Part shown: one piece after another, positions 26,166-60,300 of the stretch
Layout: every line of letters starts with the position of its first letter
Position numbering within the stretch: the stretch's first letter is position 1
Source of the DNA: Chalciporus piperatus
Lineage: Eukaryota; Basidiomycota; Agaricomycetes; Boletales; Boletaceae
NCBI GenBank assembly: GCA_038093975.1
Contig: JBBPTG010000038.1
Location: 1 to 64,000, forward strand
Direction: 5' to 3'
DNA length: 64,000 nt
The notes under the pieces: model-generated
What the model saw: only the letters and a program-made list of their open reading frames with translations
Databases searched by the model: none
Told to the model about the DNA's origin: nothing
Made by a program: the position numbers and the translations under genes

Positions 26166-29145
26166 CTAAGTGTCCACACTATTGTAGCAAAGCTTGAATA
26201 TGATACAATAAAAATCACTTGTCGTCGGATGTTTACTCCAAGTGTAGTTCGTGTTTGCTTCCTTTGCGTGCACCATCTCTCCCTGATTCGCAATGGTTTG
26301 GTCGAGGTCCTTGATGTCTGCAAGCCTGTCGAAACGAGTGCTGAGATATCCTAAGGCTGTTGAGGTAGACAAAACGGTGTGGATGATCCTCCGGAGCGAG
26401 CTTCACAGCCTCTTTCTCCTTCGCAATGGCTCGTTCAAGGTCCTTGATGTCTCCAAGCATTTCAAAACGAGTGCGAAGAGACACTCCGAGGTTGTTGAGG
26501 TACGCAGCACGGTGTGGATGGTTCCCTGGAGTCAGCTCCACAGCCTTTTCTTGTTTCAAGATGGCTCGTTCGAGGTCCTCGTTGTCTCCCAGCTTGTCAA
26601 AACGAGTGCTGAGTGATACTCCAAGGTTGTTGACATACACGGCGCAGTGTGGATGATTCTCGGGAGTGAGATTTGCAGCCTCTTCTTCCTTCATGATTGC
26701 TTGTTCGAGGTCGCTGATGTCTCCAAGCTTGCCAAAACGAGTGAGAAGAGATACAGCAAGACTCCGGAGGCGTTGAGCACGGTCTGGATGATCCTCCGGA
26801 GTGAGCCGCACAGCCTCTTCCTCCTTCGAAATGGCCCGTTCGAGGTCCTTGAGGCCTCCGAGCCTTTTGAAAAAGGCTCTGAGGGATATCGCGAGGTTCT
26901 GGAGCCGCTGAGCACGATCTGGATGATCCTCCGGAGTGAGCCGCACAACCTCCTCCTGCTTCATAATCACTTGTTCGAGGTCCTTGATGTCTCCAAGTTT
27001 GCTGAAACGAGTGCCGAGAGATACCCCAAGGCTCTGAAGGCGCACGGCACGGCGTAGATGGTTCTCCGGAGTGAGCCGCACTGCCTCTTCCTGCCTTGCA
27101 ATTGCTTGCTCGAGGTCATGGATATCTCCAAGCTTGCTGAAGCGAGTACCAAGGGATACCCCAAGGTTCTGGAGGTGCTCAGCTCGTTGTGGATGATCCT
27201 CCCCTGTGAGATGCATGGCCTCTTCCCCCATTGCAATGGCTCGTTCGAGGTCGTCAATATCACCAAGCTTGTCAAAACGAGCTCTGAGAAATGCCGCAAG
27301 GTTCTGAATGTGCTCAGCGCGGCATGCATGCTCCTCTGGCGTCAGCAGCACGGCTTCTTCCCCCACCGCGATGGCTTGTTCGATGTCCTCGATGGCTCCA
27401 AACTTGTTGAAGCGACTGCAGAGAGATTCCCCGAGGTGGCTGAGATGAGAAGCGCGATTTGGACAATGCGGGTGAACGAGTAGTAGAACATCCTCATGGT
27501 TCGCGATTGCTTGGTCAAGATCATCAAGCCGACCTTGCTCTCCTTCTATTTGGAAACGTAGCCTCAGTGCGACGCCGAGGTTTTGCAGCCTGTAAGGCCA
27601 GTCAAAATAGTCTCTGGGGAAGACTCGAACAGCCGCATCCAATTCGAGGACCAACTTGTTGATTTCAGATAAATTGCAGTGATATTCAGCCCTGATCCGT
27701 TTGTATGTTTGGAGGAAAAGGATTGCAGCTCGGTGCTCATGACTGCCCCCAGCACAAGTCCTTGTGACCTCATTCATGAGTTTCTCCATCTCGTCCGTGA
27801 GGGGTTCGTCGTGTACCCGTCTCCGGTAGCGATGCAAGAGTGCCTGACCGAGGGCTAGCAGGGTGGCTGGGCGATCCGGATGAGGAGAACGGCGCATCTC
27901 GAGTGCCTCACCATATAGGGCAATAGATTTAGCGATCGTCTTGTCTCCACCCCTAGCCTCAAATATATAGTACTTTGCCTTCGCGAGGTTGAACAGTGCG
28001 GCAGGGCGACATTCATCGTCGGGATGACAAACGCGCAGAGCGCATTCGAAATGTTCGATAGCTTCTTTGAGATCCTCTTCCTTGTAGTACTCGTAATAGC
28101 GGAGGAGGGCATCATGCCCTATATCCGTCTCGTGCGCCACGGCTGAAGACCTTTCCCACTGCCACAAAGAACAATTTGTTGTGAGCAATATACGGACTCT
28201 CCGACAGGACAGGGGGCGTACATTGTTATTCTCATGACTAGAATAAGCCTCGAAATCCGGACAATATCTCCGTCCTGCAGTAATTAGAAGTGACGAACAA
28301 CGTTCCCTTCCTCCTGAAGAGAAATTGATGACTTTCATGATCTGAGTACCCACAAGTACGCAACAGGTCGTGATATTCTTACGGGAGGTGTTTCCAACCA
28401 GGTCCCCCACGGTGATATCTGCCGAGCAGAGAGTTGATCCGTTGCCGAGCATTGGCTCGATCTCGAATGCAGCACAGAATGAAAGTTGGAGTCTAGCAGA
28501 AGGATCATTGTACCTGAATATCATGAGTACAATAAAGCATAGAAGTTTGACGAGTGTCTCACAAAATGATTTCATCGTCCCATTCAATGACAGTTTCGCA
28601 TACCGGTATAGACCGAACCCCGGTCCTCCTTCGAAGCCCATTGAACTGGAGAAGAACATAAAAACCGACTGGTAGATGAGTGAGACCAGTGATGATGTCG
28701 TCAGCCCGGATGCCTGCAAGAGCTTTGTTAGGATTCATCAATAACACATTAAACAAGTCCGTACGTGAAATAACGATCCATGAATTGTCGATCGAAGGCG
28801 TACGGAGCGAGAATACCTCGATCTTGGGACACGGTTTAGTTGCATCCTTGCTGACGGCGACAAAAGTGTTGTTGTCCAAAGGCGAGGATAGGGTGGTCAC
28901 TTCGAGACTGGACACAACCTTGAGCCGTTTATTGCCATCTCCACTGTCAATGAAATAGTCCACACTCTGAACATTAGGAAGGAATGAAAAACGCACTTCT
29001 TGCTCTCCAGCCAAACGGCGTCTAAAAATAGCAGCGACAGGTCAATCCTTTTATATAGTCAACCATAAAAACAATCTACTTGCCATTCTCAGAAGCCGAG
29101 ACGTATTTGTCGCCCAAAACTTCCCAGACGTAGCCTTCGTTCACG
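26166..29145 (-). CDS. C2-like domain plus tandem TPR protein, frameshifted at its end
   Basis: Exons from about 29.14 kb encode a beta-rich stretch (GYVWEVLGDKYVSASENG, FSLRTPSIDNSWIVIS). A C2-like segment follows: LQFNGLRRRTGVRSIPVCET, VIEWDDEIIL, YNDPSARLQLSF and ITVGDLVG. From about 28140 a large exon carries helical repeats. Nine of them are regular 45-residue TPR units of the type GDIKDLEQ-I--QEE-VRLTPEDHP-RA--LQNLG-SL-TRF-KL. Such proteins in Agaricomycetes often end in a CHAT protease-like domain; here none follows. At about 26350 the frame slips from YLNSLRIS into a different frame. The repeat continues as LSTRFDRLADIKDLDQTIAN in the shifted frame, and both frames end within 200 bp. 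The product is therefore truncated. It may belong to one transcript with the gene upstream (29.1-30.4 kb). Confidence 0.7.
26290..27530 (-). repeat. Nine tandem 135-bp repeats coding for TPR units
   Basis: The spacing between equivalent CGAGGTC positions (for example 26571 and 26706) is 135 bp, or 45 codons. The units share long identical stretches at the DNA level. That suggests recent duplication or gene conversion within the array rather than only old protein similarity. A tenth unit is partly preserved beyond the frameshift at the 3' end of the gene. Confidence 0.85.
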
Positions 29146-32342: not shown

Positions 32343-34009
32343 ATGGCGTCTCGCAGAAGCGGTATAATGCGCTTATGGTTTGGTAGCACAAGAAACTCAC
32401 CCGCCCCCGAGGCAATCCAACCAAACCCACCCACTAAGGTGAGTTCTATCCCCCAAGCAACACATCTCACCCACTTACGACATAGCGATCGGATGGCCAG
32501 GCCGACAGTCACATCGTCGACGAATTTCGGCAATACATCAACAATGAAATCCCTTTTCGTCTAATCGACACATCCACCATGAAATTCGTCACTCGAGAAG
32601 CCCTCTTCAACGTCTTCTCTCCCGAAATCTCCAAAATTACCGAAGACGTCGTCATCCAGCGCACGACACTCGATCACGGGGACTCCGACCCCGCATTGGG
32701 CATCTACGTATCCAAATACAAAGCAGCCGTCAGAGAGATCATTCAAGAAGTCGTTCGCTACGTCGTCTTCTCTCATCGCTGGACGGACAGCGAACCTACA
32801 TATCAAGAGATTTCTGCTGGATCGGCGAAGAAGAAACAGCGGGAAACGCCTGGATTCGTTAAACTTGCGCAGTTGTGCGAGAAAGCGAAGATGTTGAAAT
32901 ACAGGTTCGTCTGGTCGGATACGTGCTGCATTGATAAGATGAACCCGACGGAGCTGGGGGAAGCTATCCATGCGATGTTCAAGTGGTATGCGAATTCCCA
33001 CTTGTGCATCGTGCACCTGGCGGAGTCGATGTCATACTCTGACTTTGGTCACGAGTCCTGGTTCAGGAGGGGTTGGACGCTTCAGGAGCTCCTTGCCCCC
33101 AGCCGAATCAAGTTCTACAACAAAAAGTGGCAACCGGTTACAGGGCATCATATTCCCAACGACAAAAACGACATCGGTTTCATGTCCGCTCTCTCCACCA
33201 TCACCGGCATCCCACGGGACGCTGTCGTCGCGGACAATAGCAGAGGCATCAAAGGCCGCACGATCTGGGAGATCATGTCGTGGGCCTCGAAGCGCAAAAC
33301 GACCCGTACCGAGGACACTGCCTATTCTCTCCTCGGTCTCTTCGACATCAATGTCCCAGTCATGTACGGCGAAGGCGGAAAAGCCTTCCCCAGACTTGTC
33401 GAGGCAATTGTTGCAAAGTATGGCCGATGGGACGTGTTTGCTTGGGCTGGACAAGCTTCGGCAAATAACCCCGCACTTCCTTCCTCGCCTGCATGCTACC
33501 CCAAATTCGAGGAGATGATGGTGGCCGGGGACGTCGGGATGAACGACTTCTCGATCGCTCCCTGTGGGCTGCGGTTGAAGTCTGTCCCGCTTATCCCGGT
33601 GCGACTCGACTCGGTATTGGGGGAGCAAGTAGGTGGCTGTTTCAAGGTGACGCTGAAACCAAGAGCGCGCTCAGAGTCGAGCATATACGGTGACGTCGTC
33701 GTGCGCTGCGGGTCATCGCGGCTACGTCACATCCGCGAATCGAAGGATCTCCACGTATGCGTGCTCAATTACCAACCTGTCGGATGGAGCGGTCGCGGGA
33801 AGCTTAGGGTTGGGCGCGAATACGTTTGTTTCCTTTTGCACATGGAGAGCCGCGGTGCAGAGGGATCTGGGTGGCTCAAGTTCGCCACAGACAACCTTTT
33901 ACGCATTTCGTGCAAGGAGAGACCCAAGCATGCTTCCGGGGCCGAAGATGGTGTATTCGAGTTACCGCTCCAGACTACATACGTACGGGCTCCTCAAGCT
34001 ACTCTCTAG
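32343..34009 (+). CDS. HET-domain protein (heterokaryon incompatibility)
   Basis: HET domains are fungal cell-death inducing modules used in non-self recognition. Exon 1 (32343-32438) and exon 2 (32486-34009) join in phase to 539 residues. The three HET blocks are clear. They are YVVFSHRWTDSEPTYQEI; FVWSDTCCIDKMNPTELGEA with IHAMFKWYANSHLCIVHL; and WFRRGWTLQELLAPSRIKFY with TRTEDTAYSLLGLFDINVPV and MYGEGGKAFPRL. The upstream LIDTST motif is typical of the basidiomycete branch. The C-terminal 200 residues are a beta-rich region of the DUF8212 kind, I believe. No NACHT or WD40 part is present. It is the intact paralogue of the relic at 5.4-6.2 kb. Confidence 0.93.
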
Positions 34010-34239: not shown

Positions 34240-36007
34240 TCATACCACATATACGTTCTCCTTCTGTATCTGGTATCCTTCCAAGCGTTTGAAATATTCC
34301 AGTCGCTCTCGTCTCTCTTTCTCGTACTGCTGGGGATTGGGGCTGTCAACACATTACCCCATGACTACAAGTCGAGCAAGAACTTACTTCTCGTGTACCG
34401 TCGGACATCCCGAGAACGTCCTCAAGAGCGGTTGCTTTCCCCTTCCCCTTCGTATCTTTGGAGATCGCTTTGCCCTTTGGTCGACCCCGCGAAGCAGGCT
34501 TGGCAGTCGTCGCCTTCCGAGTCTTTGTAGACACCTTCGATTTAGACTCTAACTTCTTAGACCTGCTAGATGCAGGCTTCGTGTGGGTCTCCGTTGTCGT
34601 CTTCGTGCCGCGAGCCCTCAACTTCATCCCACCACCCCCATCATCCGAACCGCTCTCCGTGCCTATTAACTTTGCATTCGCCCCAACGGCTGCCCGTCGC
34701 GTACTTCGTCTTGGAGGAACGGGCGTCGGTGGTGCCGATGATTTGCTTCGACGGGTCGAAGCTGGCGTAGACGACGGCGTAGGTATATGTTGATCTGAAA
34801 TCCTGACCCGCTTGCGCGTAACTGCCTGTGTAGTACGGTTCTCAACCGGCTGTTTGACGCGACCCTTCATCTGGGCCCTCGTCACTCTCAGTATGGGTAC
34901 AGGTATGGGGGTATGCGTATCGCTTCGTCTGCGATTGCTGTTTGTACCCACGGAGACTTTGACGGGGGATGGACTGGATGGCACGTCGCTCCCTTCTCCA
35001 TCCAGATCATCGTCTGGAGTTGGGGAGTCGCGACGCTTGCGTTTGCGTGGGGTACGTAGTGGATCAGGGAAAGTGGGCTGTGAGTGCGTCGTCCCGATGG
35101 CTGCGAGTGGTTGGTCGCTCTTCATCGTCAATAAAGGTGCAACGGGTATGGATGAGCGAGATGGGCCAGGTATTGGCTCATCAGAGTATAGACCTTCAAT
35201 GTCCTCGTTATTGGTGGGTACGGGTTCGTTGAGCTGGGAGAAGGAGAAAGCGGGTGTCTTGGAAGAGGTAGCTACCGTGCTGCGAGGGGGTGACTTTACA
35301 GTACTGGGACGGGTAACGGGTTTGTTGCGGGGTGCTGGTGCTGGTAAAACGGTGCGCTTGGCCTTTAACGCACGCTCTACCGCAAAGAACCCGAACGGAT
35401 CAGAGTCCGATGCTTTGGTAGGTGTGTTGACCTCGTACTCGTATCGAGAACTGGTGCGATGACCGCGAGAGCCACTTGTCGCATGTACATGGTCAAAGTT
35501 CGAGGTAGATGGAGGGAGTGGTGAACTGGGAGGGAGTGAGGAGGATGAGCGGGAATAAAGCCAATTAGGTGGATCAGCTGGATAAGCGAGCGACTTTGGC
35601 TTCTTCGGTCTTCTAGGTGGCTCGATCGTATTCGGTGCCGATCGTTTGAGCGACTTGAACACGCGGACAGGGGATGGTGAAGGTGGATGGAAGAACTGGT
35701 CGGTGATATCGCGGAGGGGCGTGTCCTGAGAGGCAACAGAGTGGGAGTGTGGTGTACGGGCTGCGAATACGGAGGATGAACGATGGACGGGTGCGTAGAC
35801 GGGTGGAGGCTGGGACGAGTGTTCGTCGAGGATCGGCGTGTTCTCGTCGTTCTCTTCCTCGAATAGACTGCCCTCGCCCTCTGGTTCGACATTATGTATT
35901 TCCCGGTCATTCTCGACGACGAGCTCCTCCCCTTCCTCGCTGTCGGCGACGATGAGCTCCTCTTCGGGCGTTGGATCTCGTCTTTGGCGACGCGTTCGAG
36001 GTGGCAT
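34240..36007 (-). CDS. Disordered nuclear protein, candidate fungal sororin
   Basis: Exon 1 (36007-34388) and exon 2 (34329-34240) join in phase, giving 569 residues. Almost the whole protein is disordered, rich in Ser, Pro and basic residues, with many SP/TP sites and an AT-hook-like RGRPKGK (508-514). Four motifs stand out: YSR at 151-153, DPFGFFAVERALKAKR with FGF at 205-207, a conserved-looking C-terminal helix (EKERRERLEYFKRLEGYQ) and KEN at 563-565. Metazoan sororin has YSR, then FGF (binding Pds5/Wapl), a KEN box for APC/C and a C-terminal helix with an F--E-F-L pattern that LEYFKRLEGYQIQKE matches. I chose the ATG at 36007 (MPPRTRRQRR); an in-frame ATG 25 codons upstream is possible. 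The sororin call is an inference. Another disordered chromatin protein remains possible. Confidence 0.8.
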
Positions 36008-36376
36008 GGTGGCAACAATGATAGGGTTCGTGCGTGGGAAAAACACAATTGTGTAATTGTCACGTGCAAGATTAAGCCTCATTGATCACATGACTCGGGT
36101 ATATGAATGGTTCCGGTACCGCAGTCATCTCGCCATCGACGCCAGTCTCGATCGACTCTTTGATATCAGACGATTCACTCGTAAATTCATTTGCACATTC
36201 GCTGCCAACATGACATGATGATATGATTCCTATTTCTTTAGCCCATACCACCCGGCCGGTCCCACACCCACCGAAATCGAATCACCCTCACACGACATCC
36301 CGTAACGAGCGTCAGGTGGTGATTATAATCCTTCTCCAATTCATCTCACTTACCCACACCAAACACCCACCCGACC

Positions 36377-37498
36377 ATGTTCTCCACATCCTTCAAACTC
36401 CCCCGGCACATCCCCATCACGCGGAACATCCTCCTCCAACACCGTCGGAACATGAGCGTACGTCCCCCGAAATCCCCACCATCATCCACTTCTTCCCCAC
36501 AAGCAAAGAAGACGACGATCGCTCGACTAGCCGAACTCCGGGCTTCGAAGACGCCCATATCCGTACTCACAGCTTATGACTTCCCAACCGCTCGTGCATG
36601 TTCCGCTCATCCCGTCGATATCACCCTCGTCGGTGATTCCCTCGCACAAGTATGCTTGGGATACCCTTCTACCACCCGTCTCACCCTCGACGAAATGCTA
36701 CACCACTGTCGCGCAGTCGCACGGGGCACCGCTACCCCTCTCCTCGTCGCTGACATGCCTTTCGGAACGTACGCAGCCAGTCCTAGAGACGCTGTACTCG
36801 CAGCAGTGAGGATGATCCAAGAAGGTCAAGTCGAAGCTGTCAAACTCGAAGGTGGTGAAGAACTCGTTCCACAGGTACGAGCACTCACCACGATGGGAAT
36901 ACCCGTCATGGCACACATCGGTCTTCTCCCACAACGTTCGACGTCCCTCTCGGGTTACCGAGTTCAGGGACGGACAGCCAAATCGGCTAGTGCCCTTCTA
37001 AGAGCTGCACTTGCCCTGGAGAAGGCAGGCGCCTTCTCGATCGTACTAGAAGCGGTACCCAGTCAGGTTGGGGAGTATATCACCGAGCAACTCGAGATAC
37101 CGACGATTGGAATTGGGGCTGGTCCCGGTACCAGTGGGCAGGTTCTGGTGTGGGATGATATGCTTGGGACCTGGCACGGTCACAAAGCCAAGTGAGTATC
37201 CTACCATACCCATCTAGTAAAGATCAATGCAGACCTAGGTTCTAGGTTCGTCCGCCATTTCGCCAACGTTGCGCAAGAAGTCTCCCTTGGGGTAGCAACA
37301 TACGTAGACGCTGTCAAAGAACGATCCTTCCCACATCTGGTGCGGGAAGGCTACTCCATGGACCCACAAGAATGGGATGCCTTCTTGCGCAGCGAGGGTC
37401 ATGAAGTACCAACACACTCGAGCACCACCAACCCATCACCCGAAGAACACCAACCACCCTCCCCAAGCGCCAACCAACCCATCACCACATCGCAATGA
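36377..37498 (+). CDS. ECM31: 3-methyl-2-oxobutanoate hydroxymethyltransferase (ketopantoate synthesis)
   Basis: This enzyme makes ketopantoate from 2-oxoisovalerate and methylene-THF, the first committed step of pantothenate and CoA synthesis. Exons 36377-37191 and 37246-37498 join in phase to 355 residues. PanB-family motifs are SVLTAYDFPTARACSAHPVD, ITLVGDSLAQVCLGYPSTTR, PLLVADMPFGTYAASP, VEAVKLEGGEE, PVMAHIGLLPQ and IGIGAGPGTSGQVLVWDDML. The Asp residues of VGDS and ADMP bind the metal in this family. The N-terminus MFSTSFKLPRHIPITRNILL is basic and hydroxylated and looks like a mitochondrial presequence; a second Met (MSVR) follows. The C-terminus has a Pro/Ser-rich tail beyond the enzyme core. 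Confidence 0.95.
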
Positions 37499-39901: not shown

Positions 39902-41593
39902 TCATGGAGTGGTCGTGCTCTTCTGACACACTCCACAGCCCGCAACGCTGGTCGTCGTTCCCTGCACGGAACACTGTTGAAGAGGACTCGGGCCACACGC
40001 AATGCTCCCACCGAGGCCCGAGTTTCCATTGAGCTCCAGGACCTGCAGCGTGCTTGGGAAAGTCGGTACTGCACCAGTAAGGTTGTTCGAGCCTAGCAAC
40101 AACTGCGTGAGTCCTTTCATGGAGGAGATATCACTCGGAATGGAACCGGTGAGCGACGTTGACGTGAGGTCAAGAGTGCGCAGTGACGCAGCAAGAGAGG
40201 AAGACCCAGCGATTGCGGCGAGCGGCGACGGCGACAATGGTTGCGAGTTCACAAGTCTACATGGCGGAGTCAGGACATCATCAAACGCGGACAAGGGGCT
40301 CAACTTACAGGCTCTGTAGTCCCGTTAGACCAGTCAAACTACTTGGGAGAGTTGGACCCATTTGTGAGTTGTGGACCAGCGCAAGGGTAGAAAGTTGCGT
40401 GAGACCTGGTGCGGAGAACAGCGAATTTGGCAGCGCAGTGATGGAGGTAGCCTCGAGGTGTAGATTCGAGAGGGAAGTCAAGTTGGTGAACGAACTTGGA
40501 AGGGAACCAGCTACGAAAATGCATGTTAACGTTGGTCATAATACCACTAGAGAACCGCTTACCTGGTATCGTGTTCCCCCCGATGACCTCAAGAGTCTGA
40601 AGTGCAGTCAAAGCGCCAATCTCATTGGGAAGCGTAGCCGGGACTCCAGGGAACATCAGTTGCCTGAGGAACAGTGAGTGAACGGCATTGTATGTATCCC
40701 CAGGAAGGCTCACAATGACGAGACGCGCTCCGAAGTATCGCAGACCACACCATTCCAGGTGCAGAAGTTGAGGTTCTGCACCCAGCTACCATTTCCGAGG
40801 GTAGCCTGCCCCTGCGAGTTCGCCGTCTCGTAGATTGCACGAAGACTGCAGAACTGAATAGCGTTATTTATCTGCTGCGCATTTTGGGAGTTCGCCGGAT
40901 TCGAGGCATACGACGAAGGCACAGCCTGAAGAGTCGATAGACAAGTCGAACAAGGATAGCCTGGGGGTGACGAGGGGGCGTTCAAGACATATTGCGAAAG
41001 ACATTGTTGAGCATCCACAGAAAGCGCATTCGCCGTCGACGTAGTTTGACTTGTCGACACCATTGACGATGTATTCGTAAGCGAGAGGACGCGGACGTCC
41101 AAAAAAACGACGTTTCCGATTAAGAGAAGGATGACGATGATGAGGAAGAGGAGGAGACAACACGATCTGCGATTTTGTTTCCTCATTCGAGCGTCGTGGT
41201 TAGGGTCATGAGGTTGTTGACATGGACGTTTCTCGACCTGAAGTGGTGGCCACTGAGAAAGCCGGGGGTCGTGTACAGGAATGAGGTCCGGTTCAGCGGG
41301 GTTGACAGTACGAACGTCGAGGTAGAGGTTCGTGAATCTACGGACACCGGAAGAGGTGGGTGGAGCACCTGGACACCGGAAGAGGTGGGTGGAGCACCTG
41401 CACCCGCCTCGATGTCGGGCGCGGGTTGAGAACGCTTGGAGTTATTCCTGCCAAACGAGAGAGGTGGGGGTTCAGATGGGGCGATGGTCGATGTCGGAGA
41501 GAATCTGGAGGTCTCGATGGGGATGTCTAGGTGGTTGGAGGGTATAGAGAGAGGTGGCAGGTGTTCACGGAACCTTGACCTTGGCTCGCTCAT
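39902..41593 (-). CDS. Type II membrane protein with plant-like leucine-rich repeats
   Basis: The cytosolic N-terminus (MSEPRSRFREHLPPLSIPSN) is Ser/Pro-rich, about 120 residues. An intron joins HHF to RKQNRRSCCLLLFLIIVILL, a signal anchor with basic residues before it, so the rest is outside the cell or in the lumen. The outside part starts with a Thr/Ser stretch and the LRRNT-like cap NLNFCTWNGVVCDTS. Plant-type LRRs follow: LPNEIGALTALQTLEVIGG, LRTLDLTSTSLTGSIPSDIS, GLTQLLLGSNNLTGAVPTFP and LQVLELNGNSGLGGSIACGP. It ends at 39902. No kinase domain is present. Such LRR ectodomain proteins are unusual in fungi but known in Agaricomycetes. A 29-bp tandem duplication lies in the cytosolic part. 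Confidence 0.82.
41342..41399. repeat. Perfect 29-bp tandem duplication inside the LRR gene
   Basis: The 29-base unit starting GGACACCGGAAGAGGTGGG occurs twice head to tail without mismatch. It lies in the first exon of the LRR gene on the minus strand. Because 29 is not a multiple of three, the two copies are read in different frames (APPTSSGVQ, then VLHPPLPVSVDS), and the frame downstream is set by having two copies. Confidence 0.95.
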
Positions 41594-50497: not shown

Positions 50498-52301
50498 TTA
50501 TTTGCGAGCCACTGCACTACTCTGACTCGCTGCAATAGCTGGCGGCGAAAGAAGAAAGTCGTTTACACGCTTGAGCGTCGTGCGAGATGGATTTGCTTGT
50601 GGATAACTTGATATAATCCATTGAAGGCGAGTCTTGAGGACGTCTTTGGCTGCGGCACGTAGTACTCAGTGACTTTGCCTTGTTTGAAAGAACCCCCATG
50701 AAGGGACACGTACACAAACTGTCCCGTTCGTTTCCTTTTGGACAGACTGATCCGTCATCATGGAAACACATTGCGAGCGCAGCAACAGCGACCCCGACGC
50801 AGAGGTCGGTTCTAGTAGTGCATGCGATGCATACTTTACGTCCGTTATGGAGGTGGTGCTGGATGAACGGTAACGAGCGGGGAAGGACGACAGACAGAAA
50901 GTGGTGTCGGCCTTTCTTTCCCTCGGGAGTGTGGATGCTCAGCATCCTAGAGTCTGTTTCTGCAGGCTCCGTACTTGCCGTCGACCACTCAGAGTTCTCG
51001 GTAGTTAGACAGAGGAAAGCAATGTCTTGGAAGGCTTGTAGGAGTTCAGTGGAACGTCGCAATGAGGCCAAGGGGCATATCGAGAGGATCCCAGAAACGT
51101 GTTCGATTGGTATCGTATGAAGGGCATGTTCGGAATCATGACCGATGTTGTTGGTGGGAGTTGAGATAAGCGTACGAACGAGATCGGGAAGTTCAGACGA
51201 TGTCGCTCCCAGTATCACCTCGTAATTCTTCCAGAACATGTCCGGAGTGAGGCCCTGTGTGGGGAAGATGGAAATACTCAGCCAGTGTCGACATTGCAGG
51301 CGACAAATGGTACGAACCATGCTCCAAAGTTCGTGGTCATCTCCAGACCCTTGGATGTACGCGAACCCTGACGTACGGCGTTCCAGGCCGTCCGTTACCT
51401 GCTTGGATGCAGAGACGCAGATTATTGGATAAAATATACATCCCGGTGGTCTCGGGAAACTTGGGAATATGGTTGTGGTCGGGGTGATCCATATAGGGCG
51501 GAGTGGATAATCAAGCTTCGGTAGTTCATAGAATGAATCCTATCAAAGGGATTGAATACGTAGTTCGACACAGCCCGCAAAGCAGAAGGCCACTTACCGC
51601 GAGGTCGGAGGCCCATCGGTCGAGTCTGCGCTCGATTTGATTGTGTTCCTGCGGGCTGACGACCCCGGGGGGCGTGTACAGCGCAGTGTCCCAACTGAGC
51701 GCGTTGATCTCAGGTGATTTCTTGAGGATCGTACGATTGACGAGTGAGCACCATATTGGAACTGTTTTTGATAACGCGTCAGGTATGCGCTTCCCGGCTC
51801 GTGTTGAATCTACCAGAACGAGTCTGTTTCGTGAAACGCGTACTGAGACCGACGCGATGGATCGATGGGAGTAAAGACCTACCCGCCGTGAGAGGTTATC
51901 AAGGGAAGGAGATGGAGATTCGGTCTCCGTAGATTGAAGCTCCAGTTGTTTGTGTGACCATCCGTCGACTTGAAGTAGGCACGTTCCGTCGAGGCCTGCG
52001 ATTGTGGGCATGGTGTAGAGTTAGCACTTATGCCACCAATACTTGAACGTGGTCATACGATCTTTGGATTGGTATACCACGCGCCGCAGCGCATGTTTGC
52101 TAGGCAGATCTGGCATCAGTTGACTCAGAATCCAGAGACTGCCTAGTTAAGCTTACGCAGCAAAGGAAAATGTGGGTATTGTTCGTGGACTTGATTGACA
52201 AAAGCTGCATCTTCGGCGATGGATTGGATCCTGTTGAAGATGGACTGGGACTCCTTCCTCAGCTCTGCGAGAGCGTCCGCAGTGGCTTGCTTTAGATCCA
52301 T
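50498..52301 (-). CDS. RIT1: tRNA A64-2'-O-ribosylphosphate transferase
   Basis: Rit1 adds ribosyl phosphate to A64 of initiator tRNA-Met, which keeps it out of elongation. The start MDLKQATADALAELRKESQS is followed by FNRIQSIAEDAAFVNQVHEQ and YPHFPLL, then ANMRCGAWYTNP. The core reads GLDGTCLLQVDGWSHKQL, LVLVDSTRAGKRIPDALSKT, VPIWCSLVNR, ALYTPPGVVSPQEHNQIERR and GLTPDMFWKNYEVILGA. The C-terminal domain reads FLSVVLPRSLPFIQHHLHNG, RKVCIACTTRTDLCVGVAVA and LKTRLQWIISSYPQANPSRT. It ends AVARK at 50498 after splicing the last exon. Four or five introns are needed. The family is restricted to fungi and plants, and the motif match is strong. Confidence 0.94.
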
Positions 52302-57364: not shown

Positions 57365-60300
57365 ATGGCATCTTGGAGTCCTCAGCCTGCAGGATTGCAG
57401 GAAATCCTACAAACGATACGCGATTCGACAGACACCCAAAACAAAGTTCAGAGAACCATAACTCACGTATGAACTCCACTCGCACTCGTCCCGATCTTGC
57501 AGTGTTCACTCCCATTTCATCTAGAAACTCAGCAGCTTCACGCGCGTACCAGACTACATAGCGTATCTGGCTCATATCTTGGCTGCCTTGCCACAGGAGG
57601 AGGACCAGATCCGCACAATTGCCGGTTACCTTCTCAAGAATAATGCATATCTTCTCCTCAAAGCATCCCCCGAGGCTGCAGAGTATGCTAAGGCTGCCGT
57701 GCTTTCTGCTTTCAGTGACCCTTCTGCTCTCGTCCGCACCGCCGCTGGTCAGGACGTCGTTGCCTTCCTAGGGGTCTTGGAACCCAAAAATTGGCCCGAT
57801 TGCCTCGAACAGCTCGTGGCTATGCTGGATGATCCAACTCGTCAAGAGGTGAGTCAAATAGCCTCTGAAAGGATCAAGCCACTACGGTGTGTCTGCGCTA
57901 TACCCCACGCAAACCCTTGCTTGCGTGCACTTTGTGCGCCACATTGGTTGTTTGTGGCAAATCTCGCCCTGTTAGGCGGCTTGGCCACATACGTTCTGCT
58001 AAGAGTGCCGTAATATGCCTCTAGGTCATGCATAGTTCAACATCCAAAGCTGTCGCAGGGCCTTGTCTGCCACTCCCGCCGATCACACTTTCTAGTGGCG
58101 TTTTAATATGCTTTCAATCATTTACTGAAACTTTGAGCGTAGGCTGCCTTCAGTGTCTTTGAGAAAGCTTGCGAAGATTTCCCTCGTAAACTGGACATTG
58201 AGATCAACGGAACACGCCCCCTCGACTTCATCATTCCAAAGTTCTTGATGCTATCAGAACACCCCTCACCTAAAATGCGATCTCACTCCGTCGCTTGCTT
58301 GTCTTATTTCGTCCCGATCAACTCGCAATCTCTCTTTGCCCACATTGACACCTTCATCGCATGTTTATTCAAGCGCGCATCAGATGAAGACCCCTCGGTT
58401 CGCCGTCATGTGTGCCAAGCACTAGTACTACTCCTCGCAGCTCGTCCTGAGAAGCTCATGCCGGAGATGGTCAGTGTAGCAGAGTATATGCTGTACTCCA
58501 CCAAGGACAAGAACGAGAGTGTCGCATTGGAGGCATGTGAATTTTGGTTAACCTTTGCCGAAGACCCCGATCTTGCACCTTACTTGCATCCTCTATTGGA
58601 CCGGGTCGGACCTGTCCTTCTGGATTGCATGGTTTATGGCGAAGACGACTTGCTTTGGCTCGAGGGGGACACTCAAGACACGAACGTCCCCGACAAAGAA
58701 TCCGACATCAAACCACGTCATTACGGTGCCAAAGCCCATGGAATGGAGCGCGAGGGAGGCGAAAGTACCGAGGAACTAGCCAAGCGCAGCGCCTATGGCC
58801 AGGAGACACTAGACGACGACGAAGACGACTACGACCTAGACGATGACGATTTCGCTGACGAGATGTCAACGGAGTGGAACCTACGGAAATGCGCAGCGGC
58901 AGCACTGGATGTATTGGCTGTCAGGTTCGGCGTCGATCTGATGAATGTCCTCCTTGCCCCTCTGAAGAACAAACTATGGAGTGAGGAATGGTTGCAGCGG
59001 GAGAGTGCGATCTTGGCATTGGGTGCTATGGCGGAAGGTGGGGTTGTTCACGTGTTCGAATGGCCCAATTCTAACTAAACGACCAGGCTGCATCGACCAC
59101 ATCGAGGACCATCTCAAGGTCCTGATCCCCTACTTGATAAACACACTTAATGACCCCAAGGCACGTTAGACCCTGCTTCGAAATGCTCCGCCCTTGATTT
59201 TTGACCCCCGTAGCCCCTTGTTCGTTCGATTACCTGTTGGACGCTAGGCCGTTATGCAAGTTGGTGTACCCAACCGCTATCGGAAGAACACAAGAATCGA
59301 TACTTCATCCCTACAATGGAAGGTGTACGTATGGGGTCTACCGTCTGATCTTCGCTGGCTTATTCCGTAAACAGCTTCTTCGCATGGTTTTAGACGACAA
59401 CAAGCGTGTACAAGAGGCTGGATGCAGTGCCTTTGCTACGCTTGAAGAAGACGCCGGAGCAGAACTCGTTCCCTATCTTGAACCAGTTTTACGAAACTTG
59501 GTTTTCGCGTTCCAGAAGTATCAGCACAAGAACATGCTCATTTTGTATGATGCCGTTGGCACCCTTGCAGACGCAGTCGGACGTGCATTGTCGAATCCCC
59601 AATATGTTGACATCTTGATGCCCCCGATTACTGAGCGGTGGAATAAACTACAAGATGACGATGAAGATCTGATCCCCCTCCTCGAGGTGAATGGTATTGT
59701 TCATGAGTGCTACAGAGACTTACACCTTTCACACAGTGTCTTTCATCGGTCAGCATCGCTATGGGTGCTGGATTCACTCCCTACGCTCCTCTCGTGTTCC
59801 AGCGCTGTGTCAACATTGTCCACCAAGCGCTTCTTCAATACCAAGCCTACCAACAAAATCCAGACCTGGATGAGCCCGACAAGTCTTTCCTCGTCGTTTC
59901 ACTGGATCTCCTATCAGGTCTAGCGCAGGGCATGGGTGCCGCGCTCGAGCCCATCATTTCACAGACGCAGCCTAGTCTTGTTTCGCTACTCACCGTGTGC
60001 TTGAAACACCCTCAAGCACCAGTGCGTCAGTCGGCGTACGCACTCGTCGGCGACCTTGCAATGGGATGCTTCAATCTATTGCGTCCTCACCTTCCTGCCA
60101 TCATGGCTGAGCTCATCCTACAGCTTGATCCTGAGCCAAAGGTGGAGTTTGTCAGCGCTTGCAATAATGCTGCTTGGTCGGTTGGTGAGGTCGCTTTGCG
60201 CTACGGGCGAGGTGAGACTTTTCCCGTTCTGTCTTAACCGTGTACCTAACTCGTTCATTCATACCTTCGTAGATGACCCCGAGTTCCAACAATGGGTCAA

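What the first reader, a model, noticed from the sequence alone, without database searches (positions are those of the whole stretch)
34240..36007. Candidate fungal sororin: YSR, FGF, KEN and a sororin-like C-terminal helix in one disordered protein
Seen: a 569-residue disordered basic protein with YSR (151-153), DPFGFFAVER (FGF 205-207), an AT-hook, many SP/TP sites, and a C-terminal helix whose pattern F---E-Y-I--E matches the end of metazoan sororin (F---E-F-L--E), overlapping a KEN box. Known: sororin uses YSR and FGF to bind Pds5/Wapl, and its C-terminal helix is the conserved domain. Inference: this could be the basidiomycete sororin, a Wapl antagonist that protects sister-chromatid cohesion. 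The C-terminal exon is only 30 codons and is easily missed, because the ORF otherwise runs into the intron.
Basis: partly seen in the sequence, partly recalled or inferred. Interest (0 to 1): 0.75.

Follow-up and report, generated by a model that had tools for sequence, protein, structure and literature searches.

The report
Likely mushroom sororin, a cohesion protector
A mushroom gene with no database annotation encodes a mostly unstructured protein whose two longest conserved patches look like those of sororin, the protein that keeps sister chromosomes glued together until cell division; if confirmed, it would extend sororin to the mushroom-forming fungi.

Summary
I collected 130 relatives, all unannotated Agaricomycete or metagenome proteins. 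The two longest conserved islands are DPFGF-AVE--LKA (128 of 130) and a C-terminal box ending at the stop (98 of 130; 19 of the other 32 models read past the same intron donor). AlphaFold2 predicts a mostly disordered protein with a confident helix on each island. FGF, then a K/R-rich stretch, linker and C-terminal F--[LV][DE]-Y helix is the published sororin layout, and F553/L556/E557/Y559 have the spacing of four residues needed in S. pombe Sor1. Wapl, Pds5, Eco1, Scc3, Rad21 and Smc3 matches are in the genome. Against: no Pfam sororin match, no significant profile match to mammalian sororin, YSR not conserved, KEN probably not a degron. Verdict: probable basidiomycete sororin (0.68), a new member of a known kind. 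Binding and cohesion are untested.

The parts
34388..36007 (-). Exon 1 (residues 1-540), disordered basic protein
   Evidence: Open frame from the ATG at 36007 to the GTAAGT donor at 34387; 65% identical to P0001 over its residues 1-549 in the own-genome search
34330..34387 (-). 58-base intron, GTAAGT...CCCCAG
   Evidence: homologous models either splice to TRE-x-YE or read on past the same donor (19 of 130 by pattern, none of which has the box)
34240..34329 (-). Exon 2: C-terminal box QYEKERRERLEYFKRLEGYQIQKENVYVV (residues 541-569) plus stop
   Evidence: complete box in 98 of 130 sequences; helix in the AF2 model of P0052
34273..34293 (-). F553-x-x-L556-E557-x-Y559, same spacing as F299/V302/D303/Y305 of S. 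pombe Sor1
   Evidence: column-permutation P = 0.0012, residue classes chosen by me
34255..34263 (-). KEN 563-565, inside the box
   Evidence: KEN in 69 of 94 complete boxes (stricter pattern, no insertion); E in 86 of 86 unique tails, K in 73, N in 75
34436..34576 (-). K/R-rich stretch with an AT-hook-like RGRPKGK (about residues 478-524), followed by a polar linker
   Evidence: 22 K/R against 6 D/E in the 79 residues before the last 31
35354..35404 (-). FGF island SDPFGFFAVERALKAKR (residues 202-218)
   Evidence: FGF 120, FGL 4, FGI 4 of 130; helix in AF2 (P0052 123-136)
35519..35536 (-). LPPSSP island (residues 158-163), short but the highest mean identity of the six islands
   Evidence: [LF]PPSSP in 121 of 130, island mean 0.87
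34958..34978 (-). SSPSPVK island (residues 344-350)
   Evidence: SPSPxK in 96 of 130
35042..35053 (-). TPRK island (residues 319-322)
   Evidence: TPxK in 114 of 130
35702..35716 (-). LRDIT island (residues 98-102)
   Evidence: [LFMIV]xDIT in 94 of 130; RxxLxDIT in 0 of 130
35549..35557 (-). YSR (residues 151-153): present but not conserved in the family
   Evidence: 13 of 130

Best explanation
This is the Agaricomycete sororin, a Wapl antagonist. The most likely mechanism has two contacts, both inferred. The C-terminal helix and the short tail after it dock on the closed Smc3-Rad21 N-terminal gate of acetylated cohesin and hold it shut. The DPFGF island sits either in the Pds5 groove or in the Wapl cleft that Wapl would otherwise use to open the gate, so Wapl cannot release cohesin from replicated sister chromatids. 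Conserved SP/TP islands would let mitotic kinases remove the protein before anaphase. Shown here: gene structure, conservation, predicted helices, order of elements, matches to the partner genes. Inferred: orthology to sororin, both binding sites, Wapl antagonism and kinase control.
For: The two longest islands are FGF and a C-terminal box ending at the stop. The order of elements equals the published definition: positive stretch, polar linker of 10-20 residues, C-terminal motif (PMC11148194, passages). AF2 gives a disordered protein (mean pLDDT 53) with a 21-residue C-terminal helix (301-321, block pLDDT 84 and 91) and a helix on FGF (123-136, blocks 82 and 65); PMC10656103 describes the sororin box as a six-turn helix. 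The four residues needed for S. pombe Sor1 function (F299, V302, D303, Y305) have same-spaced counterparts, column-permutation P = 0.0012. Sor1 also has a putative FGF. Partners in the genome: Pds5 (best E 7.8e-78) with an APDAP loop, Eco1 (5.1e-14), Scc3/STAG (9.6e-34), Rad21/Rec8 (2.5e-16), Smc3 with GLKKDEY (4.9e-25), and Wapl (1.0e-4, 25.8 bits over a 24.6 cut-off, one exon only) with YGR and TY-x4-RSFL in the same frame. Apart from one small fragment the gene is the only match to its Hydnomerulius homologue in the genome.
Against: Pfam Sororin_C and Sororin_middle do not match: 0 families for the window protein and for its box at E up to 10, neither among the 16 families hit by 46 members, none in the whole genome (no control genome rang, and only a bacterial control rang, below cut-off, with no candidate scored in G000). 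hhalign against mammalian tails gives P = 0.56 on one aligned column. In the ungapped profile test the F-anchored offset is the best of 41 but not significant (P = 0.57), and the published animal consensus gives P = 0.10. The W, N and upstream hydrophobic positions of the animal box do not match. The published motif includes a beta strand; the model assigns none to the tail. YSR is not conserved. No known fungal sororin sequence could be fetched, so the link to Sor1 rests on four residues and lengths given in a paper. LPPSSP, an island with no counterpart that I can name in sororin, is as conserved as the other two.
Confidence: 0.68

Rival explanations
1. A Pds5- or Wapl-binding cohesin regulator that is not descended from sororin: it acquired an FGF-type motif to dock on Pds5 or Wapl, and its C-terminal helix contacts something else.
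For: FGF motifs are short and are also found in Wapl itself (PMC10656103 passages). The profile match of the C-terminal box to metazoan sororin is not significant.
Against: It does not explain why the second long island is a C-terminal helix with the S. pombe Sor1 spacing, preceded by a K/R-rich stretch and linker.
Confidence: 0.12
2. An Agaricomycete-specific nuclear or chromatin protein with no role in cohesion; FGF and FxxL[DE]xY are chance resemblances found by looking for sororin.
For: The motifs were chosen after seeing the sequence. No named hit outside Agaricomycetes was seen in the two searches. Disordered, basic, AT-hook and SP/TP features are common in nuclear proteins (general knowledge). 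LPPSSP, which has no sororin counterpart known to me, has the highest mean identity of the islands.
Against: The two motifs coincide with the two longest of six islands. A rough product estimate gives 0.0005 to 0.008 proteins per 12,000 with both in place by chance (independent residues assumed, choice of motifs not corrected for).
Confidence: 0.17
3. Another known cell-cycle protein (securin, shugoshin, INCENP-like) in diverged form.
For: Conserved SP/TP islands and an LxDIT island.
Against: No Pfam family is hit by more than 1 of 46 members, and the best of these (E 0.0042) is bone sialoprotein; NCBIfam, a prokaryote-oriented library, gives 0 families for 4 of 4 proteins. No folded domain in the model.
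Confidence: 0.03

Closest known systems
S. pombe Sor1 (SPAC9E9.05) and the Pezizomycotina, Lipomyces and Yarrowia sororin-like proteins (PMC11148194, passages and sections 6 and 8 seen)
   Same: K/R-rich stretch, then C-terminal box; FxxVDxY (14 residues before the end in Sor1) corresponds to FxxL[DE]xY (16 before the end here); putative FGF in Sor1
   Different: No named ascomycete appeared in our search from the mushroom side; sequences could not be fetched for direct alignment; the mushroom tail ends in a fixed [ED][ND]VYV[VI]
Vertebrate sororin (CDCA5)
   Same: Order FGF, basic stretch, linker, C-terminal box; F, acidic residue, aromatic and final E at the same spacing
   Different: No YSR next to FGF, no N-terminal KEN, lacks the W and N of the animal box; no significant profile match
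Sordaria macrospora Sororin (PMC12758814, passages seen)
   Same: Fungal, mostly unstructured, C-terminal sororin box
   Different: Reported to lack FGF and KEN motifs, whereas the mushroom family keeps FGF in 120 of 130
A. thaliana SORORIN (PMC11148194)
   Same: K/R-rich stretch and C-terminal sororin domain
   Different: Reported to lack FGF and KEN

Membership tests
Sororin | Short conserved C-terminal motif with key F, hydrophobic, acidic and aromatic residues at the extreme C-terminus | tested here: met
   F553/L556/E557/Y559, 16 residues from F to the end; complete box in 98 of 130, strict FxxPhi[DE]x[FY] in 81 of those 98
Sororin | Statistically significant profile match to the sororin C-terminal region | tested here: not met
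   No Sororin_C hit at E up to 10; hhalign P = 0.56 against 46 unique mammalian tails. PMC11148194 reports that its S. pombe candidate was also only E = 1, so I treat this as a failed test of significance, not as exclusion
Sororin | K/R-rich stretch and polar linker before the box | tested here: met
   By a lenient rule (4 or more K/R in 8 residues) a basic cluster precedes F in 98 of 98 complete boxes, median 24.5 residues, range 17-65, 35 or fewer in 88 of 98; window 28
Sororin | C-terminal helix of about six turns | tested here: met
   AF2 helix 301-321 of P0052, block pLDDT 84 and 91; the beta strand named in the paper is not assigned
Sororin | FGF motif (vertebrates, putative in S. pombe; reported absent in plants and Sordaria) | tested here: met
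   FGF in 120 of 130, FGL/FGI in 8
Sororin | YSR motif close to FGF (vertebrates) | tested here: not met
   13 of 130; 51 residues away in the window. Described as a vertebrate feature in PMC10656103, so not defining for the whole family
Sororin | KEN degron (vertebrates, Drosophila) | tested here: inconclusive
   KEN anywhere in 81 of 130; in the window it lies inside the box
Sororin | Binds cohesin (Smc3) and Pds5 | not testable with these tools
   Single-chain prediction only
Sororin | Loss causes a cohesion defect relieved by loss of Wapl | not testable with these tools
   Needs genetics
Sororin | Host has the Wapl-Pds5-Eco1 release and protection system | tested here: met
   the Wapl match is one exon just over the cut-off, supported by fungal Wapl motifs in the same frame

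The most novel reading that the evidence does not exclude
Mushroom-forming fungi keep a sororin of vertebrate-like layout (FGF, basic stretch, C-terminal gate-clamping helix) that other fungi have partly lost, with an additional conserved set of SP/TP islands for mitotic removal. Sororin with FGF would then date to the animal-fungal ancestor, and prophase-type control of cohesion could be studied in a mushroom.
Probability: 0.5. Interest if true: 0.65.

Novelty: new member of a known kind. Interest (0 to 1): 0.52.

Why it matters
Sororin was known only from vertebrates and insects until S. pombe and Arabidopsis proteins were reported (PMC11148194, 2024) and a Sordaria one studied (PMC12758814, 2025). 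A clear family in Agaricomycetes gives 98 aligned boxes for modelling the disputed docking site (STAG versus the Smc3-Rad21N gate). It also points to unannotated genes, such as PC9H_008087 of Pleurotus ostreatus (P0196), for direct deletion.

Tried and rejected
Searches for a better-fitting family gave nothing credible: Pfam hit 16 families, each in 1 of 46 members, best E 0.0042; PDB 1 hit at E 0.4; NCBIfam none for 4 of 4 proteins.

YSR as evidence: rejected, not conserved. KEN as a degron: not supported. An N-terminal D-box was considered for the LxDIT island: the RxxLxDIT form occurs in 0 of 130. The SSP islands resemble the polo-box-binding S-[pS/pT]-P form, and human sororin is recalled to bind Plk1 through such a site; the literature search did not confirm it (0 occurrences of 'ST159P' in the 8 of 11 papers listed, none opened), so it stays a lead.

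Profile comparison with mammalian sororin: not significant by hhalign, ungapped profile score or animal consensus. Of 248 sororin hits only 120 were listed, and the named ones are mammals, so a broader metazoan profile could not be built. No Sor1 or other ascomycete sequence could be fetched.

The masked-island profile search showed no named sequence outside Agaricomycetes. Its word filter and length window limit reach, so absence elsewhere is not shown.

Literature: sororin with basidiomycot* gave 0 papers in the held library. A six-term search listed 20 of 10,698 papers, none with sororin. Of the 4 papers, PMC12759081 and PMC11048021 were not opened. Supplementary Fig. 1 of PMC11148194, which may show basidiomycetes, was not readable here.

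Full report
OBSERVATION. The gene model is right. On the minus strand the frame opens with ATG at 36007 and runs to a GTAAGT donor at 34387. A 58-base intron ends at 34330, and a last exon of 29 codons plus stop ends at 34240. The acceptor is a tandem CAG CAG. The 569-residue protein holds YSR 151-153, FGF 205-207, RGRP 507-510 and KEN 563-565.

THE FAMILY. The full-length homologue search returned 75 proteins at E up to 10. A second search with a masked profile of the two main islands returned 94, of which 54 were new. Window plus 129 proteins make 130 sequences; all were kept in the counts, including truncated models. Five of the 129 never reached E 0.001 in either listing (P0064, P0067, P0068 and P0070, and P0249); the first four carry both islands (for P0070 the second F of FGF is L) and P0249 only the FGF island. 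P0070 was also one of the six profile sequences. No listed member has a precomputed Pfam domain, and the named ones are called hypothetical, uncharacterized or unnamed. Named members include Paxillus, Suillus, Coniophora, Mycena, Pleurotus, Marasmius and Schizophyllum. Orders were looked up for Athelia (Atheliales), Thelephora (Thelephorales), Auriscalpium (Russulales) and Trametes (Polyporales); Boletales and Agaricales are recalled placements. The window protein groups with Boletus, Chiua, Butyriboletus and Imleria in a quick tree of 18 sequences. The own-genome search with the Hydnomerulius homologue finds the two exons of this gene and otherwise one fragment.

WHAT IS CONSERVED. In an alignment of 46 diverse members six islands stand out: LxDIT, LPPSSP, DPFGFxAVExxLKA, TPxK, SSPSP and the C-terminal box. 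The box (28 columns) and the FGF island (18) are the longest; LPPSSP has the highest mean identity (0.87, against 0.75 for FGF and 0.73 for the box). DPFG followed by F, L or I is found in 128 of 130 and the complete box, with one inserted residue allowed, in 98 of 130. Because 54 sequences were found with these very islands, the fair count is the other 76: DPFG-[F/I/L] in 75, complete box in 50. In 86 unique tails (taken from the 94 boxes without insertion) the R at -21, the E at -6 and the Y at -3 are invariant, and Y-18, F-17, L-14 and Y-11 are kept in 84 or 85.

STRUCTURE. AlphaFold2 on the Mycena homologue P0052 with 46 sequences gives mean pLDDT 53 and pTM 0.18 (disordered). Two elements are confident: a helix at 123-136, starting inside FGF (block pLDDT 82, then 65), and a helix at 301-321 on the box (84 and 91). 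A third helix, 36-49, is low confidence. The last eleven residues have no assigned structure. The sororin box is described as a six-turn helix followed by 4-5 residues lying across beta sheets (PMC10656103, section 10 part 1 read).

COMPARISON WITH SORORIN. PMC11148194 (passages, sections 6 and 8) defines sororins by a positive stretch, a polar linker of 10-20 residues and a C-terminal motif of two helices and a strand. It shows that F299, V302, D303 and Y305 of the 313-residue S. pombe Sor1 are needed. The window's F553, L556, E557 and Y559 have the same spacing and lie 16 rather than 14 residues from the end. Permuting the family's columns reaches the observed agreement with this four-residue pattern with P = 0.0012 (20,000 permutations; V widened to VILM, D to DE, Y to FY). 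The published animal consensus also scores best on the same F, but P = 0.10. The mammalian profile prefers the same register (best of 41 offsets) but is not significant (P = 0.57), and hhalign finds nothing (P = 0.56). Pfam's Sororin_C and Sororin_middle do not match; no control genome rang, and no candidate was scored, so those two say little about absence. The link is therefore architectural plus a four-residue register, not a significant sequence match.

PARTNERS. The genome holds matches to Wapl (one exon, 25.8 bits against a cut-off of 24.6; an N-terminal YGR motif and a TYAGRSRSFL motif in the same frame, one residue longer than the published fungal consensus), Pds5 with an APDAP loop (a methanogen control also rang for this family), an Eco1-type acetyltransferase, Scc3/STAG, Rad21/Rec8-type kleisins (four matches), and Smc3 with GLKKDEY, the acetylated-lysine site by recalled knowledge. 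No FGF was seen in the Wapl exon examined.

MECHANISM. I commit to a Wapl antagonist. The C-terminal helix clamps the Smc3-Rad21N gate and FGF occupies the Pds5 or Wapl groove. The gene structure, conservation, predicted helices and partner matches are shown. The contacts and the antagonism are inferred from the published models of animal, plant and Aspergillus sororins.

YSR is present in 13 of 130 and is not near FGF. KEN in the window is part of a conserved E-[N/D]-VYV tail. AT-hook-like patterns occur in 39 of 130.

LITERATURE. Within the held library no paper contains both sororin and a word beginning basidiomycot. PMC10656103 mentions basidiomycetes only for the Wapl-Pds5-Scc3 complex and for Scc3 in the passages seen. 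Whether Supplementary Fig. 1 of PMC11148194 includes a basidiomycete is unknown.

Noticed in passing
L024 1435-1621 (contig C161), matching window 34959-35150: A fragment of this gene (193 aligned columns, 84% identical) lies elsewhere in the genome, in a frame that soon departs from the family: a dispersed partial copy.
   Followed up: partly
window 32486-34009 (+): HET-domain (heterokaryon incompatibility) frame, convergent with the sororin candidate.
   Followed up: no
window 36329-37195 (+): Ketopantoate hydroxymethyltransferase frame, divergent from the sororin candidate.
   Followed up: no
window 26233-28734 (-): Long frame with a TPR array.
   Followed up: no
window 40710-41441 (-): By eye: a hydrophobic, membrane-like stretch followed by a sequence like the N-terminal cap of plant leucine-rich-repeat receptors (NFCTWNGVVC); no Pfam hit for this frame.
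   Followed up: no
window 50517-51539 (-) and 58143-59923 (+): Rit1-type (Init_tRNA_PT) frame, and HEAT-repeat frames (Pfam hit on 58143-59078) that resemble a karyopherin (recalled resemblance).
   Followed up: no
Family members P0208, P0231, P0237, P0238, P0241: These carry one extra residue between L-D and Y in the box (as in KLDSDY), perhaps a tolerated kink at the helix end.
   Followed up: no
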